DNA of 64,000 nucleotides from Caldimonas brevitalea (GTDB taxonomy: Bacteria > Pseudomonadota > Gammaproteobacteria > Burkholderiales > Burkholderiaceae_C): the NCBI RefSeq assembly GCF_001017435.1, contig NZ_CP011371.1, forward strand, positions 6,386,001 through 6,450,000. Direction: 5' to 3'. This document shows positions 16,349 through 23,014 of this stretch, piece after piece (positions within the stretch are counted from its first letter, which is position 1; every line of letters starts with the position of its first letter). The notes beneath the pieces are model-generated. The model saw nothing but the letters and a program-made list of their open reading frames with translations, was not told where the DNA came from and ran no database searches. A program made the position numbers and the translations under genes.

Positions 16349-17053
16349 ATGACCCACACCCCGCCGCGCTTGTTGCTGCTCGAAGACGACCCCGCCATCG
16401 CGCGGACCGTGGCCTACGCCCTGCAGCGCGAAGGCCATACGGTCGAGCACGTGTTGTTGGTGCGCGATGCCCGCGCGCGGCTTGCGGCCGGGGCGGCCGA
16501 CCTGGCGGTGCTCGACGTCGGGCTGCCCGACGGCAGCGGCCTCGACCTGTGCCGCGAGTTGCGCCAGCAGGGCTCCGGCCTGCCGATCGTGCTGCTGACC
16601 GCGCGCGGCGACGAGACCGACCGCGTGCTGGGCCTGGAGCTGGGCGCCGACGATTACGTCAGCAAGCCGTTCAGCCCGCGCGAACTGGTGGCCCGCGTGC
16701 GGGCCCTGTTGCGGCGCTCGAAACTCACGTCGGCCGAGCCGCCTGCGCCGCCGCCTTCGCCGCTGGGGCTGTTCGAGGTCGACGAGGCGGCGTCGCGCAT
16801 CCGCTACTGCGGCCAGCCGCTGACGCTGACGCGCCGCGAGATGGGACTGCTGCGTTTGCTGCTGCGCTCACCCGGGCGCATCTACTCGCGTGAAGCCTTG
16901 CTCGACGCGGTGTGGGGCAGCGATGCGGACAGCACCGACCGCACCGTCGACACCCACATCAAGACGCTGCGCGCCAAGCTGCGCGAAGTGCGGCCCGACG
17001 CGGAGGTCATCACGACCCACCGCGGGCTCGGCTATTCGCTCGACCCCAAGTGA
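16349..17053 (+). CDS. creB: Response regulator, CreB type (REC + OmpR/PhoB winged helix)
   Basis: A 234-residue OmpR-family response regulator (E. coli CreB is 229). The receiver domain spans about residues 8-120, with acidic pocket EDD near the start, phospho-acceptor Asp56 in VLDVGLPDGSGLDLC and Lys106 in YVSKPFSPREL. A Pro-rich linker (EPPAPPPSP) leads to the DNA-binding domain (LTLTRREMGLLRLLLRSPGR, then THIKTLRAKLREV and THRGLGYSL). The frame is open upstream to 15863, but ATG 16349 starts the conserved domain. It is followed after 76 bases by a CreC-type kinase, and creD lies 3.8 kb downstream with CreB boxes in front, supporting the CreB assignment. Confidence 0.9.
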   Translation: MTHTPPRLLLLEDDPAIARTVAYALQREGHTVEHVLLVRDARARLAAGAADLAVLDVGLPDGSGLDLCRELRQQGSGLPIVLLTARGDETDRVLGLELGADDYVSKPFSPRELVARVRALLRRSKLTSAEPPAPPPSPLGLFEVDEAASRIRYCGQPLTLTRREMGLLRLLLRSPGRIYSREALLDAVWGSDADSTDRTVDTHIKTLRAKLREVRPDAEVITTHRGLGYSLDPK

Positions 17054-17129: not shown

Positions 17130-18572
17130 ATGAAGCTCGGCTTGCGGCTGTTCCTCGGTTTTTTCCTGATCGCCGGCATCGCCGCGTTTTTCGTGCTGCG
17201 TGTCTTCGTCGCCGAGGTCAAGCCGAGCGTGCGCGAGGTGATGGAAGACATCATGGTCGACACGGCCAACCTGCTGGCCGAGCAGGTGGCCGACGAGATG
17301 GCCGCGCTGCCGCCCGGTGCCACCCTCGCCTCCAGCCGCTTCGCCGAGCGGGTGCGCGCCTACGCCAGCCGTCCGATCGACGCCAAGATCTGGGGCCTGA
17401 GCAAGCAGACGCTCGACTTCGGGGTCTATGTGACCGACGCGAGCGGCACCGTGTTGTTCGATTCGCGGCCGGGCATGCCGCTCGGCCGGGACTACTCGCT
17501 CTGGAACGACGTTGCGCGCACCTTGCGAGGCGAGTACGGCGCACGCGCCACCCGCGAGGTCTATCTCGACGACCTGACCTCGGTGATGTACGTCGGCGCA
17601 CCCGTGAAACACCAGGGACGCATCATCGGCGTGCTGACGGTGGCCAAGCCGCTCTCCACCGTGCAGAAGTTCGTCGCACGCGCCGAACGCAAGATCCTCG
17701 TCAGCGGTTTGTGGCTGCTGGCCCTGTCGCTCGCTGTCGGCGTCGCCGTCACCGGGTGGCTGGTGTGGTCGGTGCGCCGGCTGCGCCACTATGCGCAGCA
17801 TGTGCAGGCGGGCCGGGCGCCCAAGGTGCCGCAGCTGTCCGGCGAGCTGGGCGACCTGGCGGTCGCGGTCGACGCGATGCGCGAACGGCTCGAAGACCGC
17901 GAACATCTCGAGCACGTGGTGCGGGCGCTGACGCACGAGTTGAAAAGCCCGCTGGCCGCCATCCACGGCGCTGCCGAGCTGCTGCAGGACGAATTGCCGG
18001 CGCCCGACCGCCACCAGTTCGCGCTGCAGATCACCGAACAGAGCGAGCGTTTGCGCCTGCTGGTCGATCGCATGCTGGAGCTGTCGAAGCTCGAGGGTCG
18101 GCGCGCGCTGGACCAGGCCACCAGCGTGTCGCTGCGCACGCTGGTCGAACGGGTGCTGGCCGATGAATCGCCCCAGCTGGCACGCCACGGGGTGACCCCT
18201 CGCTGGCTGTCGAGCGACGACCTGACGGTGCACGGCGATGCCGAACTGCTGCACCTGGCCTTGAGCAACATCGTCCAGAACGCCATCGACTTCGCACCGC
18301 CGGGCTCGACGCTCGACCTGTCGCTGCGCCGCGAAGGCGGCCATGCCGTGGTCGAGATCCGCGACCACGGGCCCGGCGTCGCCGACTATGCGCTACCCCA
18401 TCTCGGCGAGCGCTTCTACTCCACCGTCAAACACGACGGCAAGAAGGGCAGCGGGCTGGGCCTGGCGATCGTGCGCCAGGTGGCCGAGCTGCACACCGGC
18501 GGGCTGGAACTGCTGGCGGCCGACCCCGGCCTGCGGGTGCGCATGCGCCTGCCGCTCCGCTCATACCGTTGA
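17130..18572 (+). CDS. creC: Sensor histidine kinase, CreC type
   Basis: A 480-residue inner-membrane kinase (E. coli CreC is 474). An N-terminal transmembrane segment (LGLRLFLGFFLIAGIAAFFV) and a second at about residues 190-212 flank a periplasmic CreC-type sensor domain of about 160 residues (AKIWGLSKQTLDFGVYVTD). A HAMP-like segment is followed by the HisKA site His269 in RALTHELKSPLAAIHG and an ATPase domain with N box SNIVQNAIDFAP, DHGPGV and GSGLGLAIVRQV. It is co-directional with creB. The signal sensed by CreC is still poorly defined in the family; growth in minimal media and carbon metabolism are implicated. Confidence 0.9.
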   Translation: MKLGLRLFLGFFLIAGIAAFFVLRVFVAEVKPSVREVMEDIMVDTANLLAEQVADEMAALPPGATLASSRFAERVRAYASRPIDAKIWGLSKQTLDFGVYVTDASGTVLFDSRPGMPLGRDYSLWNDVARTLRGEYGARATREVYLDDLTSVMYVGAPVKHQGRIIGVLTVAKPLSTVQKFVARAERKILVSGLWLLALSLAVGVAVTGWLVWSVRRLRHYAQHVQAGRAPKVPQLSGELGDLAVAVDAMRERLEDREHLEHVVRALTHELKSPLAAIHGAAELLQDELPAPDRHQFALQITEQSERLRLLVDRMLELSKLEGRRALDQATSVSLRTLVERVLADESPQLARHGVTPRWLSSDDLTVHGDAELLHLALSNIVQNAIDFAPPGSTLDLSLRREGGHAVVEIRDHGPGVADYALPHLGERFYSTVKHDGKKGSGLGLAIVRQVAELHTGGLELLAADPGLRVRMRLPLRSYR

Positions 18573-18807
18573 GCGCGCCACCCGTCGGACGGAGCGAGCG
18601 CTTACGTAACTCGACGTTCATCGGCCCAAGGCGGGGTTCTCGCCTTCCGCCCAGTCAGGTCCTTTCACACAGGGCGCAACACCTTCAAGCGCCGCGTTAC
18701 ACAACGACATCGTGTGTACAGCCCGCGTGGGACAGTGGCGGCGCCACCCGTCCTGTCGGCATGAAGAGGCTGCTTTCCTTGTGCCTGAACACCGGAGCCT
18801 GTTGAAT

Positions 18808-20400
18808 ATGAACTTGTTCGATATCTTTCGCGCCAGCCCGTCAGGGCCCCGCGATACACATGCACGCCGTGCCTGGCTCGCGGCCCTGCTGGTGTCGAGT
18901 CTCGGCGGCCTGCTACCCGCATCGCAGGCCAGCGCCGCGGCCGAGCCCCCTGCCTCGCCGACCCCGCAGGCGCGCCCGCTGCGCCCCTTCGTCCAGCTGC
19001 AGCTGCCCCAGCACCAGGTGCAGGGCCAGCGCGCCGTGCAACAGCTGGGGCCGCGACTGCACGAGATCGCCAGCCGGTACGGCCGCACGCCCGAACAGCT
19101 GCGCGAGTTGCTCACCACCGACCGCGCCGCCTGGCTGGACCGGCGCGGCCGCCTGTTTTTCGTCGAAGAGCCGAGCCCGCTGCCGACGTCGGCCGGCCTG
19201 CGGTCCGACCCGCTCGGCGCCGCCCGCCCCAGCCTCGCGCCGCTCGACCAGACCTTCGCGCTGCACAGCCGGCCCGGTGCGCGCCGCACCCTCTACCTCA
19301 ACTTCCGCGGCGCCGATCTGAGCCAGAGCGTCTGGGGCGAGAACCGCGCCGGCCTCTATGCCGAGCCGTTCAGCGTCGACAGCGACCCGAACAGCTTCAG
19401 CACGCTGGAGCTGGAGCGCATCCAGTACGTGTGGCAACGCGTGGCAGAGGCGTACGCCGCCTTCGAGATCGACGTCACGACACAAGACCCCGGCCAGGAT
19501 GCCTTGCGCCGCAACGATGCGAATGACGAGCGCTACGGCACCACCGCCGTCATCACGCGCGACACCTTCCTCAACTGCGGATGTGGTGGCATCGCCTACG
19601 TCGGTGTGTTCGACGCCGGCGACGACCACCTCAAGCCGGCGCTGGTGTTCTACAACGCGCTCGGTGGCGGCGACGAGAAGTCGGTAGCCGACGCGGCCGT
19701 GCACGAGGTGGGCCACAACCTCGGCCTGAGCCACGACGGCACCGCGACCCAGGGCTATTACCTCGGGCATGGCGAGGGCGCCACCGGCTGGGCGCCAGTG
19801 ATGGGTGCCGGCTACTACAAACCGCTGGTGCAATGGAGCCGGGGCGAGTATGCGGGCGCCAACAACACCGAGGACGACTACGCGGTGATGGCGAACAACG
19901 GCTTGCCGCTGATGCGTGACGACCACGGCGCATCGCTGAACGACGCCACCCCCTTGCAGCCCGGCACGCAGGGCTACTCCGCCCGCGGTGTGGTCGAACA
20001 CCCGGGCGATCGCGACGTGTTTCGCATCGTCGCGACGGCCGGCGCCTTCAGCTTCACGGTGCAACCAGCCGCACGCGGCGCCATGCTCGACGTGATGGCC
20101 TCGCTACACGATGCCAACGGCCAGCCCATCGCCTGGCACGACGCCCCCGGCAGCCTGGCCACGACCGTGTCAGCCACCCTGCCCTACAGCGGCACCTACT
20201 ACCTGGTGGTGGACGGCAGCGGCCAGGGCGACCCGCGGGGCACAGGCTACAGCGACTATGGCTCGATCGGGCAGTACACGCTGAGCGCCGGCACACCGTC
20301 GGCCCAGACCTTGAGATCGGTGGCGCTGCCCGCGGCTACGGCACCAGCCACCAGCGGTCCTGTCCGCACCATGACGCGCCCTGCCTCCGCATCGCGCTGA
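18808..20400 (+). CDS. Secreted metzincin-type zinc metalloprotease with C-terminal PPC-like domain
   Basis: A 530-residue exported protein from ATG 18808 (MNLFDIFRASPSG). A long signal peptide (RRAWLAALLVSSLGGLLPASQASA) ends near residue 45. A propeptide-like region of about 90 residues precedes the catalytic domain. The zinc site HEVGHNLGLSH at residues 299-309 is a perfect HExxHxxGxxH metzincin motif, followed by MGAGYYKPLVQWS and by AVMANNG, which may hold the Met-turn. Two adjacent Cys occur in NCGCGG. Residues of about 380-500 resemble a bacterial pre-peptidase C-terminal domain (GDRDVFRIVATAGAFSFTV, SGTYYLVVDGSGQG). It lies between creC and creD, with its own terminator 24 bases after the stop. 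Whether CreB controls it is unknown; no box was found in its 235-base upstream gap. Confidence 0.87.
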   Translation: MNLFDIFRASPSGPRDTHARRAWLAALLVSSLGGLLPASQASAAAEPPASPTPQARPLRPFVQLQLPQHQVQGQRAVQQLGPRLHEIASRYGRTPEQLRELLTTDRAAWLDRRGRLFFVEEPSPLPTSAGLRSDPLGAARPSLAPLDQTFALHSRPGARRTLYLNFRGADLSQSVWGENRAGLYAEPFSVDSDPNSFSTLELERIQYVWQRVAEAYAAFEIDVTTQDPGQDALRRNDANDERYGTTAVITRDTFLNCGCGGIAYVGVFDAGDDHLKPALVFYNALGGGDEKSVADAAVHEVGHNLGLSHDGTATQGYYLGHGEGATGWAPVMGAGYYKPLVQWSRGEYAGANNTEDDYAVMANNGLPLMRDDHGASLNDATPLQPGTQGYSARGVVEHPGDRDVFRIVATAGAFSFTVQPAARGAMLDVMASLHDANGQPIAWHDAPGSLATTVSATLPYSGTYYLVVDGSGQGDPRGTGYSDYGSIGQYTLSAGTPSAQTLRSVALPAATAPATSGPVRTMTRPASASR

Positions 20401-20447
20401 TCCCCGGGGGGGGACTTTCCAACAGCGCCTTCGGGCGCTTTTTTTGT
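20399..20447 (+). repeat. Terminator cassette, copy 1 of a duplicated ~50-bp unit
   Basis: Begins with GATCCCCGGGGGGGGA (20399-20414, overlapping the protease stop codon), then a short spacer and an AGCGCC/GGCGCT hairpin with a T-run and GGCC. A second copy with identical first 16 bases lies 309 bases downstream at 20708. Confidence 0.75.
20424..20445 (+). terminator. Rho-independent terminator of the metalloprotease gene
   Basis: AGCGCC-TTCG-GGCGCT, a perfect 6-bp stem with a stable TTCG tetraloop, followed directly by six T residues. Confidence 0.85.
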
Positions 20448-20533
20448 GGCCGCTGCAACCTCAGCCGGTGCGACGCGAACCCGGACGGGCAGCCGGGCGG
20501 GTGCGCGCGCCGCCACTCGACATCACACCCAAC

Positions 20534-20561
20534 TTCACACCCAACTTCACACTCGCTTCAC
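20534..20561 (+). promoter_or_regulatory. CreB-box (cre-tag) array
   Basis: Three TTCAC half-sites start at 20534, 20546 and 20557. The last two form TTCAC-ACTCGC-TTCAC, an exact match to the CreB consensus TTCAC-N6-TTCAC described for E. coli and Aeromonas. The first is one base out of phase (N7). A degenerate ATCAC precedes, and further TTCAC/TTCAT units follow at 20590, 20607 and 20616. Confidence 0.72.
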
Positions 20562-20707
20562 ACACTTCATCCTCACCTCACCTCCGCGCTTCACACTGCA
20601 GGCTGCTTCATGTTCTTCACATGGCCCAGAGGGGCACGGTCGCGAGAGCAGCGCGGTCGTGCCACAGAGAGTCACCTAGCGGTGAGCCTGCACACCAGAG
20701 GCTCGCC

Positions 20708-20760
20708 GATCCCCGGGGGGGGATTGCTTGAAAAGCGCCTGAGGGCGCTTTTTTTTTGGC
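20708..20760 (+). repeat. Terminator cassette, copy 2 of the duplicated ~50-bp unit
   Basis: Repeats GATCCCCGGGGGGGGA exactly (20708-20723), then the same AGCGCC/GGCGCT hairpin 26 bases from its start (25 in copy 1), a longer T-run and GGCC. The spacer between them has diverged in sequence. Confidence 0.75.
20734..20758 (+). terminator. Second rho-independent terminator, upstream of creD
   Basis: AGCGCC-TGAG-GGCGCT followed by nine T residues. It has no gene immediately upstream, the nearest being the metalloprotease, which already has a terminator 290 bases earlier. Confidence 0.85.
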
Positions 20761-20793
20761 CCACGGCCGCCCTGCCGGCACGCTGCGGCCGAC

Positions 20794-20809
20794 TTCACGG
20801 CCGCTTCAT
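20794..20809 (+). promoter_or_regulatory. CreB box upstream of creD
   Basis: TTCAC-GGCCGC-TTCAT matches the CreB consensus TTCAC-N6-TTCAC with one mismatch in the final base; another TTCAT follows at 20814. It lies 71 bases before the creD ATG, the position expected for CreB activation of creD, the most strongly controlled CreBC target in E. coli. Confidence 0.68.
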
Positions 20810-20879
20810 CCACTTCATCCAGGCCTCACGGCCGACACTGAGACTGCGCCCGTTTTCATCTTCATCACCTGCCTTGCAC

Positions 20880-22304
20880 ATGAAAAACGGGTTCGTCACC
20901 AAGTCACTCTTCATCCTCGCCATCGCGCTGGCGCTCATGATCGCGCTATGGCGCGTCGAAGACATCGTCGATGAGCGCCACCTGCGCCAACAGGAGGCTC
21001 AGCAGAACGTCGAGAACAGCCAGGCCGGCGCCCAGGCCTGGGTCGGTCCGGTGCTGCACAGCAGTTGCACCGAAGAGTGGCAGGCGGTGCCGGCCGAGGG
21101 CCAGGACAAGGCCCCGCAGTTGCAGCGCCGCGAGTTCATGCTGACCGCCGTGCCGACGCAACTCGACGTCGAGGCCAGCGTGGCGATCGAGCCGCGCCAG
21201 CGCGGCCTGTTCAAGGTCAACACCTATGTCACCAAGGCCCGGCTGCAGGCACGCTGGCCGCATCTCGGCGCGCTGCTGCCCAAGGCGAAGCGCACCGATT
21301 CGCACGTGGAGTGCAGCGCGCCGAAGCTGATGGTGTCGCTCGGTGACGCGCGCGGCATCCGCGTGGCACAGGTGCAGGTCCAGGGAGGTGCACTGGCGGT
21401 GTTGAGTGGCACGGGCCACCCCGCTCACCGGCGCGGCTTCCACAGCGTGCTGCCCGAAGCGCTGCGCAACGACCGCGACGCCGTGCAGGCCGAGGTGCAG
21501 CTCGAGCTGCTCGGCACCGGCTCACTCGCGCTCGCGCCGGTGGCCGAAACCACTCAGGTGCACCTGACGTCCAACTGGCCCCATCCGTCGTTCGGCGGGC
21601 GATTCCTGCCGGCGTCGCGCGAGGTCAAGCACGACGGCTTCGAAGCCAGCTGGCGCGTGTCGTCGCTCGCCACCAGCGCCGCTGCCGATTTCGCACGGGG
21701 TGCGACCCTGTGCAGCCTGCGCGGCGAGGCCGATCTGTCATCCCAGGAGGTGTCGGGCGGGACGGCGGCACCTCAGCCGGCCAGCTGCATCGAAACCTTC
21801 GGCGTGTCCTTTATCGACCCCGTCAACCCCTATGTGCTGAGCGACCGTGCCACCAAGTACGGCATGTTGTTCGTCGGCCTGACCTTCGTCGCCGTGGGCA
21901 TCGTCGAGGTGTTGCGCCGGCGCCGTGTGCACCCGGTGCAGTACCTGCTGGTGGGCAGCGCGCTGGTGATCTTCTTCCTGCTGCTGGTGAGTCTGTCCGA
22001 GCACCTCGCCTTCGGCCTGGCCTATGGCCTCGCCAGCTTCGGCTGCATCACGCTGCTGACGTACTACGCAAGGCACATGTTGGGCAGCTGGGGCGCCGGC
22101 CTGGCCTTCGGCGTCGGGGCGTGCGCCTTGTACGGCGCGCTCTACACGCTGCTGCAGATGGAGCAGACCGCCCTCGTGATGGGCTCGCTGCTGCTGTTCG
22201 TGGTGCTGGCCCTGGTGATGGTGGCGACCCGCAAGCTCGACTGGTATGCCCTGCCGTCGACGCTCGGCACGCTGCAGGCGGACGACGACACGGGTCGACG
22301 GTGA
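20880..22304 (+). CDS. creD: CreD-family inner membrane protein
   Basis: A 474-residue protein (E. coli CreD is about 450) starting with a single membrane helix (SLFILAIALALMIALWRVEDI) and a large periplasmic domain, then about five helices at the C-terminus from about residue 325. The family motif near the junction, CIETFGVSFIDPVNPYVLSDRATKYGMLFVGLTF, splits into readable parts FGVSFIDPVNPY and RATKYGMLFVGLTF. SLSEHLAFGLAYGLAS is also conserved. The residue Asp in IDPVNPY is part of the family core. It follows the CreB box and is 128 bases before the next gene. CreD function is not settled; its levels affect envelope properties and colicin or beta-lactam responses in other species. Confidence 0.93.
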   Translation: MKNGFVTKSLFILAIALALMIALWRVEDIVDERHLRQQEAQQNVENSQAGAQAWVGPVLHSSCTEEWQAVPAEGQDKAPQLQRREFMLTAVPTQLDVEASVAIEPRQRGLFKVNTYVTKARLQARWPHLGALLPKAKRTDSHVECSAPKLMVSLGDARGIRVAQVQVQGGALAVLSGTGHPAHRRGFHSVLPEALRNDRDAVQAEVQLELLGTGSLALAPVAETTQVHLTSNWPHPSFGGRFLPASREVKHDGFEASWRVSSLATSAAADFARGATLCSLRGEADLSSQEVSGGTAAPQPASCIETFGVSFIDPVNPYVLSDRATKYGMLFVGLTFVAVGIVEVLRRRRVHPVQYLLVGSALVIFFLLLVSLSEHLAFGLAYGLASFGCITLLTYYARHMLGSWGAGLAFGVGACALYGALYTLLQMEQTALVMGSLLLFVVLALVMVATRKLDWYALPSTLGTLQADDDTGRR

Positions 22305-22432: not shown

Positions 22433-23014
22433 GTGACCCGCGACGCGCTGCTGTCGATGCTGATGTATTTCGTGATCCCGATCTGGTTCATCGCCGGCAT
22501 TGCCGACTGGCTGTGCCACCGCGCGACCCGCATCGAGCACACCAGTGGGCCCAAGGAGTCGCTGATCCATTTGCTGATGTTTGCGCAGGTCGGGCTGCCG
22601 CTGGCAGCGGCGCTGATGTTCGAGATCAACGCCCTGCTCATCGCGTTGTTCATCGTGATGTTCTTGCTGCACCAGGCCACGGCGTTGTGGGACGTCAGCT
22701 ACTCCGTGAAGCTGCGCCCGATACCCCCCATCGAGCAGCACGTGCACAGCTTCCTCGAGATGTTGCCGCTGATGGCGATGCTGATGGTGTTCGCGATGCA
22801 CTGGGGCCAGTTCCTGGCCCTGTTCGGCCAGGGTGACGAAGCGCCCCGCTTCGTGCTGGAGCTGAAGGACGATCCGCTGCCGCTGCACTACGTGGTCGGC
22901 GTGCTGGTGGCAGCGGCCTTGATCGAGTTCGCACCTTTCGTCGAGGAACTGATCCGGGGTCTGCGGGCGCGCGCCCGCGTCGGCAACCGCCGCACCGACG
23001 CACCCCGCCCCTGA
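22433..23014 (+). CDS. Conserved multi-histidine membrane protein of unknown function
   Basis: A 193-residue integral membrane protein starting at GTG 22433, eight bases after AGGAGGAG. Four or five hydrophobic segments are visible. Charged and histidine residues are concentrated in three conserved-looking motifs: IADWLCHRATRIEHTSG with KESLIH, LLHQATALWD, and IEQHVHSFLE. Such a pattern suggests a membrane-embedded metal site, as in di-iron hydroxylases or haem proteins, but I cannot assign the family. Relatives are sometimes labelled diguanylate cyclase in databases, for which nothing here gives support (no GGDEF). It may be cotranscribed with creD. Confidence 0.75.
   Translation: MTRDALLSMLMYFVIPIWFIAGIADWLCHRATRIEHTSGPKESLIHLLMFAQVGLPLAAALMFEINALLIALFIVMFLLHQATALWDVSYSVKLRPIPPIEQHVHSFLEMLPLMAMLMVFAMHWGQFLALFGQGDEAPRFVLELKDDPLPLHYVVGVLVAAALIEFAPFVEELIRGLRARARVGNRRTDAPRP

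What the first reader, a model, noticed from the sequence alone, without database searches (positions are those of the whole stretch)
20399..20880. Duplicated terminator cassettes alternating with CreB boxes in front of creD
Seen directly: two copies of a ~50-bp unit (GATCCCCGGGGGGGGA, then an AGCGCC/GGCGCT hairpin with a T-run and GGCC) at 20399 and 20708, each followed by CreB-type repeats. Copy 1 is followed by TTCAC-N6-TTCAC at 20546-20561, copy 2 by TTCAC-N6-TTCAT at 20794-20809. Known: TTCAC-N6-TTCAC is the CreB binding tag and creD is its main target. Inference: a segmental duplication of terminator plus CreB promoter, giving a two-step CreB-responsive switch that insulates the protease gene from creD.
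Basis: partly seen in the sequence, partly recalled or inferred. Interest (0 to 1): 0.7.

Follow-up and report, generated by a model that had tools for sequence, protein, structure and literature searches.

The report
Duplicated CreB promoter ahead of creD
In one bacterium the switch that turns on the membrane-protein gene creD has been copied together with the stop signal in front of it, so that the farther copy probably makes only a short RNA that ends before the gene; it is an unusual variant of a well-known switch.

Summary
Two ~50-bp terminator units (20399, 20708) each precede a CreB-type box (20546, 20794) between a protease gene and creD. The 16-mer GATCCCCGGGGGGGGA occurs twice in the 6.48-Mb genome, both here, and in none of 59 other genomes; the extended box is exact twice, both here. 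Twenty-four creD-linked boxes of relatives show a longer operator: repeats at 0, +11, +20, +31, then A-N-ACTGC at +47. Both copies have this form. The distal one scores above all 24 relatives (58.3), the proximal one low among them (42.6); an 800-kb genome sample reaches 14.3. No second box was seen around those 24. So this is a partial tandem duplication of protease terminator plus creD promoter, seen only here. A terminator lies between distal promoter and creD, so the distal promoter most likely makes a ~150-nt CreB-dependent RNA rather than adding a second step to creD. Whether that RNA acts is open: no relative of it was found in 398 family genomes at limited depth, and its interior folds no better than equally GC-rich genomic DNA.

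The parts
16349..17053 (+). creB, OmpR/PhoB-type response regulator (start chosen by eye)
   Evidence: Pfam Response_reg and Trans_reg_C on the ORF containing it; tblastn matches from residues 2-8 on in relatives
17130..18572 (+). creC, sensor histidine kinase
   Evidence: Pfam HisKA, HATPase_c; 76-77% identical to the creC of the creD loci in G002 and G004
18802..20400 (+). M12-type metalloprotease-like gene between creC and creD (start not determined; TTG 18802 or ATG 18808)
   Evidence: Pfam Reprolysin_3 above cut-off, PPC below it; same place in G004
20399..20451 (+). terminator unit 1: G/C-run hairpin, AGCGCC-TTCG-GGCGCT hairpin, T7, GTGGCC; ends the protease transcript (inferred)
   Evidence: similar terminator with T-run and GTGGCC after the protease of G004
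20534..20538 (+). extra TTCAC repeat upstream of box A (N7 to the next)
20546..20581 (+). CreB operator A (distal): TTCAC-N6-TTCAC-N4-TTCAT-N6-CTCAC
   Evidence: weight-matrix score 58.3, above all 24 relatives; maximum 14.3 in an 800-kb sample of the genome
20592..20599 (+). CACACTGC at +46..+53 of box A, the presumed -10 region; transcription start about 20604 (inferred)
   Evidence: A at +47 and T at +51 each in 23 of 24 relatives; both copies have them
20604..20756 (+). predicted ~150-nt RNA from promoter A ending in terminator 2 (inferred)
   Evidence: position of promoter A and terminator 2; fold -69.3 kcal/mol, z -2.62; interior alone not unusual
20708..20761 (+). terminator unit 2: GATCCCC/GGGGATT hairpin, AAAAGCGCC-TGAG-GGCGCTTTT hairpin, T-run, GGCC
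   Evidence: pairing probabilities of its hairpin in the whole RNA 0.70-0.89; not listed by the simple scan
20794..20829 (+). CreB operator B (proximal): TTCAC-N6-TTCAT-N4-TTCAT-N6-CTCAC
   Evidence: weight-matrix score 42.6; 30 of 38 bases like A
20840..20847 (+). GAGACTGC at +46..+53 of box B, the presumed -10 region of creD
20880..22304 (+). creD
   Evidence: Pfam CreD, E 3.1e-132

Best explanation
The gap between the protease gene and creD holds a partial tandem duplication, found so far only in this genome, of the protease terminator plus the CreB-type creD promoter. Each copy has the full form of the promoter: two head-to-tail TTCAC-N6-TTCAC-like boxes 20 bp apart, then a conserved -10-like element. 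CreB acts on both. The proximal copy transcribes creD with a ~28-nt leader. The distal copy transcribes a ~150-nt RNA that stops at the second terminator, before the proximal operator, so CreB activity produces creD mRNA and a separate short RNA in parallel. Shown: two copies of terminator and box, full form of both operators and their uniqueness in the genome as exact patterns, and the single-box state of 24 relatives. Inferred: CreB binding, the start sites, termination efficiency and the short RNA.
For: 16-mer exact twice in the genome, both here, and in 1 of 60 genomes, the own one. Extended box exact twice in the genome, both here. Gap copies align far beyond 500 shuffles. 24 creD-linked boxes of relatives fix the operator and the element at +47, which lies outside the pattern used to find them; A scores 58.3, B 42.6, sampled background at most 14.3. 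In 0 of those 24 loci (mostly 1.5 kb on each side) does a second site score above 1.7. G004 has creB-creC-protease-terminator-another ORF-one box-creD; G002, L004, L005 and L006 have creB, creC and creD with no protease between. E. coli K-12 creD has TTCAC-N6-TTCAC at -77, about the same place; this is the published cre/blr-tag (PMC4689548 and PMC3660660, passages seen).
Against: No transcript or binding data. The simple scan lists no sigma-70 consensus promoter and did not list terminator 2. Linkers of the two copies show no homology (17.6 against a shuffled mean of 19.0), so the extent of the duplication is uncertain. The weight matrix was trained on boxes found by an exact pattern (19) or added by hand (5), so columns 0-23 are largely conserved by choice; other creD loci (for example L003, L017, L029, L030) do not have the full form. 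B's score is no higher than drift alone could leave (22% of simulated boxes with 12% change score at least as high). Sign of regulation may differ: in Stenotrophomonas maltophilia CreBC lowers creD expression (PMC4689548, passages).
Confidence: 0.65

Rival explanations
1. Same duplication, but the distal copy is a by-product without a role: a leftover promoter that makes a dead-end RNA of no consequence. (This shares the anatomy of the best explanation and differs only on function.)
For: One genome only; no match to the RNA body in the other 398 of 399 family genomes at E up to 1e-5, at most 2 candidates scored each; interior no more structured than equally GC-rich genomic windows (500 of 3000 fold at least as well).
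Against: The distal operator scores higher than the proximal one (58.3 against 42.6); 0.02% of simulated boxes with 12% change reach 58.3, but none of the starting boxes scored that high either, so this is weak.
Confidence: 0.45
2. Distal promoter A is the strong creD promoter and terminator 2 is a regulated attenuator in a long creD leader.
For: A has the better operator; terminator 2 lies in line between A and creD.
Against: Terminator 2 pairs with probability 0.70-0.89 in the whole RNA; it looks like terminator 1, which ends a gene; promoter B has the full form next to creD; 24 relatives have one box close to creD.
Confidence: 0.12
3. Box A is chiefly a second CreB binding site that titrates CreB or helps it bind, and the RNA is incidental.
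For: Two full operators 248 bp apart.
Against: A also has the -10-like element at the conserved distance, expected for a promoter rather than a mere binding site.
Confidence: 0.12
4. One reading: A and B both feed creD and give graded CreB control.
For: Two CreB boxes in the same direction upstream of creD.
Against: Terminator 2 between A and creD.
Confidence: 0.08
5. Promoter A drives a small protein: a 36-codon ORF at 20621-20731 ends just before terminator 2.
For: Its ATG is at +75 of box A; creD starts at +79 to +88 in relatives whose alignment reaches the start. In G160 a CreB-type box lies 84 bases before a 27-codon ORF with a hydrophobic stretch.
Against: No Shine-Dalgarno by eye; third positions 69% G+C against 88-92% for creB, creC, protease and creD; 12655 of 20000 random 36-codon frames of the genome sample are open; no DNA match in the other 398 of 399 genomes.
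Confidence: 0.03

Closest known systems
cre/blr-tag promoters of the CreBC/BlrAB regulon (E. coli creD, Aeromonas beta-lactamase genes)
   Same: TTCAC-N6-TTCAC direct repeat upstream of creD, at -77 in E. coli and -79 to -88 in relatives, with creBC in the genome
   Different: Here the operator with its -10-like element is present twice, with a terminator before each copy; one was seen in the 178 bases before E. coli K-12 creD and in each of 24 relatives scored
PhoB-type promoters with tandem direct-repeat boxes (recalled, no call)
   Same: OmpR/PhoB-family regulator, head-to-tail repeats 11 bp apart, two boxes in tandem, weak -35
   Different: Different repeat sequence; here two whole promoters with a terminator between
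Short RNAs made from a regulated promoter, and prematurely terminated leaders (recalled)
   Same: Regulated promoter, short transcript, intrinsic terminator with a long T-run
   Different: No RNA shown; no conservation found; the target gene has its own full promoter after the terminator

Membership tests
CreB-regulated (cre/blr-tag) promoter | TTCAC-N6-TTCAC direct repeat | tested here: met
   A exact, B one mismatch
CreB-regulated (cre/blr-tag) promoter | box about 77 to 88 bases before the creD start codon, as in E. coli and relatives | tested here: met
   B at -86; E. coli -77; relatives -79 to -88. A is 334 bases before creD and does not meet it
CreB-regulated (cre/blr-tag) promoter | creB and creC in the same genome | tested here: met
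   creBC upstream, separated from creD by the protease
CreB-regulated (cre/blr-tag) promoter | binding of CreB and CreB-dependent transcription | not testable with these tools
   needs footprinting and reporter assays
tandem segmental duplication | two copies in direct orientation more alike than chance, single copy in relatives | tested here: met
tandem segmental duplication | homology along the whole unit, linkers included | tested here: not met
   linker alignment 17.6 against shuffled mean 19.0 (328 of 500 as good)
known regulatory RNA family (Rfam) | match at gathering score | tested here: not met
   0 in the window; 6 weak matches at E 0.011-0.53, all below the gathering score
intrinsic terminator | G+C-rich hairpin followed at once by a T-run | tested here: met
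   both units by sequence and fold; the scan lists unit 1 only

The most novel reading that the evidence does not exclude
Duplication of a response-regulator promoter with its upstream terminator has given birth to a new CreB-controlled small RNA gene: its 5' end may copy the creD leader and its 3' end is a terminator with a long T-run, so it could act as a decoy for whatever binds the creD leader or as an sRNA made in step with creD.
Probability: 0.13. Interest if true: 0.55.

Novelty: new variant of a known kind. Interest (0 to 1): 0.33.

Why it matters
It is a clear single-genome case of how a terminator-plus-promoter duplication can create a regulated short transcription unit, and it extends the CreB operator of this bacterial group to a four-repeat element with a conserved -10-like element at +47. 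If the distal RNA has a role, it would show an early step in the birth of a small RNA gene under a two-component system.

Tried and rejected
A CreB box in front of the protease (TTCAC-N15-TTCAA at 18664): matrix score -6.6, reached by 7.7e-5 of sampled genome positions; suggestive at most, not claimed.

A structured RNA: the whole 153-nt RNA folds better than shuffles (z -2.62, 2 of 200 as good) and 33 of 1500 genomic windows of like G+C fold as well or better, but the 86-nt interior without the terminator region does not stand out (500 of 3000). Rfam gave nothing at gathering score.

A repeat family or mobile element as source of the unit: not supported, since the exact 16-mer is nowhere else in the genome and the gap matches only itself there.

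Relatives of the gap within the genus: 3 of 9 genomes (own included) matched at E up to 0.001. G002 matched over the creD box. G007, where no creD was found, gave two 28-base pieces, one 93% like 20636-20663 in the RNA body; read as chance.

A relict of the protease 3' end before terminator 2, and of the creD start after box A: alignments are weak (29 of 500 shuffles as good; 8 of 500 for the leader; 226 of 500 for the part after the ATG), so the limits of the duplication stay open.

Literature: the listings showed no title on a doubled creD promoter or a CreB-controlled small RNA. They are partial: 30 of 95 papers shown, 15 of 18, 8 of 7,104; subscription papers on cre-tags are mostly not held. 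Papers seen only as passages: PMC4689548, PMC5402928, PMC3660660.

Limits: one search scored at most 40 candidates per genome and at most 2, so weak relatives of the RNA may be missed; only 9 genomes of the genus were available.

Full report
What is there. The window is part of a single-contig genome of 6,476,147 bases. Gene order on the plus strand is creB (16349-17053), creC (17130-18572), an M12-type protease-like gene (about 18802-20400), creD (20880-22304) and a 193-residue protein without a Pfam match (22433-23014). The 479 bases between protease and creD hold, in order: terminator unit 1, CreB box A with its -10-like element, a 108-base stretch, terminator unit 2, CreB box B with its -10-like element, and the creD leader.

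Check of the observation. All coordinates are right. The repeat finder gives one family of two 50-nt copies, 76% alike, 310 bases apart. The exact 16-mer GATCCCCGGGGGGGGA is found twice in the whole genome, both here, and never in the reversed control; of 60 genomes searched only the own one has it. In 800 kb of the same genome no AGCGCC-n3-6-GGCGCTTTTT hairpin was found, although 2 of 8 terminator-like sites of a narrow search there have a GCGCC stem. The two halves of the gap align with score 100.9 against a largest shuffled score of 55.5 in 500 shuffles. The plain tag TTCAC-N6-TTCAC is not strong by itself: 6 in the genome against 3 for the reversed pattern. The case for CreB rests on the longer operator.

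The operator from relatives. creD was found in 20 of 60 genomes searched, own genome included, and in 4 named loci of genome contigs (Rhizobacter sp. MAG, Methylibium rhizosphaerae, Curvibacter sp. MAG, Hydrogenophaga sp. A37). The pattern TTCACN6TTCAYN3CTTCA is exact in 29 of 299 family genomes, at 31 listed places, two of them the window's own. Of the other 29 places 28 came as loci, and 19 of the 28 lie just upstream of creD by tblastn. With 5 further creD loci added by hand (L004, L006, L014, L015, L016) this makes 24 boxes. TTCAC at 0 and +11 is in all 24, and CTTCA at +19 to +23 is kept in 23 or 24 at each column; those columns are largely fixed by the pattern. Outside the pattern, the letters CAC at +33 to +35 are kept in 24, 22 and 24 (the fourth repeat), and an element A-N-A-C-T-G-C follows at +47 to +53, with A at +47 and T at +51 in 23 of 24 each and the other letters in 16 to 21. 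creD loci without the full form, such as L003, L017, L029 and L030, were left out, so the consensus does not describe every creD promoter here. E. coli K-12 has TTCAC-N6-TTCAC at -77 from creD followed by TTCAA at -56, and S. maltophilia has TTCACACTCGCTTCAA at about -80 to -65 (PMC4689548, passage).

Both copies in the window have the full form. Box A (20546) scores 58.3 with the matrix, above all 24 training boxes (26.3 to 57.2; A and B were not in the training set); box B (20794) scores 42.6, above only 2 of the 24. The next site in the window overlaps box B and scores 2.7; the best of 1.6 million positions in the 800-kb sample scores 14.3. Both have the element at +47 (ACACTGC and AGACTGC). 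In none of the 24 relatives' loci, mostly 1.5 kb on each side, does a second site score above 1.7. In the own genome the extended pattern is exact only at A and B.

History. G002 and the named loci L004, L005 and L006 have creB, creC and creD with no protease between (in L006 with a gap of about 0.7 kb). G004, of the same genus, has creB-creC-protease, then a 601-codon open frame with phage-integrase domains (Pfam DUF3701 and Phage_int_SAM_1), one box, and creD. G004's protease is followed by a terminator ending in a T-run and GTGGCC, as in terminator unit 1, but without the 16-mer. The simplest reading is that the protease came first, unit 1 is the original protease terminator, and unit 2 is the copy. 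Terminators, boxes and perhaps the creD leader are alike (leader: 8 of 500 shuffles as good); the linkers are not (328 of 500).

How it most likely works. A terminator stands between box A and creD, so box A cannot simply add to creD expression. Its -10-like element would start RNA near 20604, ending at 20750-20757: a CreB-dependent RNA of about 150 nt. creD would be transcribed from box B, starting near 20852. These steps are inferred; CreB may also lower expression, as reported for S. maltophilia creD (PMC4689548, passages). A function for the short RNA is open. For: box A scores better than box B, and simulated drift rarely leaves so high a score (0.02% at 12% change per copy, 0.045% at 6%), though the starting boxes themselves score at most 57.2, so this is a rough figure. 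Against: the RNA body has no match in the other 398 of 399 family genomes at the depth searched, and its interior is not unusually structured.

Verdict. The duplication and the CreB connection are well supported by sequence; the two-step switch is not. It is a new variant of a known kind of promoter, of modest interest unless the short RNA proves functional.

Noticed in passing
window 18591-18613: A stretch GGAGCGAGCRCTTACGTAACTCG with the palindrome TTACGTAA lies between creC and the protease in this genome and in G004 (L080, L081); TTACGTAA was found 0 times in the 800-kb genome sample and once in the window. Possibly a regulator site.
   Followed up: partly
window 18664-18688: Degenerate CreB-like repeat (TTCAC-N15-TTCAA) upstream of the protease, matrix score -6.6.
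   Followed up: partly
L131 1482-2871 (G230:C1): A CreB-type box (score 35.3, scored as L071) 88 bases before a 433-codon ORF of the EPSP synthase/MurA family (Pfam PF00275; MurA by eye), with no creD match in L071: a possible cell-wall member of the CreB regulon.
   Followed up: partly
L125 (G160:C1:2028194-2028217): A second exact CreB-type box, 1.2 Mb from that genome's creD box, 84 bases before a 27-codon ORF with a hydrophobic stretch.
   Followed up: partly
L130 (G224:C7): CreB-type box (score 18.9, scored as L076) 85 bases before a 170-codon ORF without a Pfam match that begins like a secreted protein by eye.
   Followed up: partly
L127 3773-5578, minus strand: In G004 a 601-codon ORF with phage-integrase domains (DUF3701, Phage_int_SAM_1) sits between the protease terminator and creD.
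   Followed up: partly
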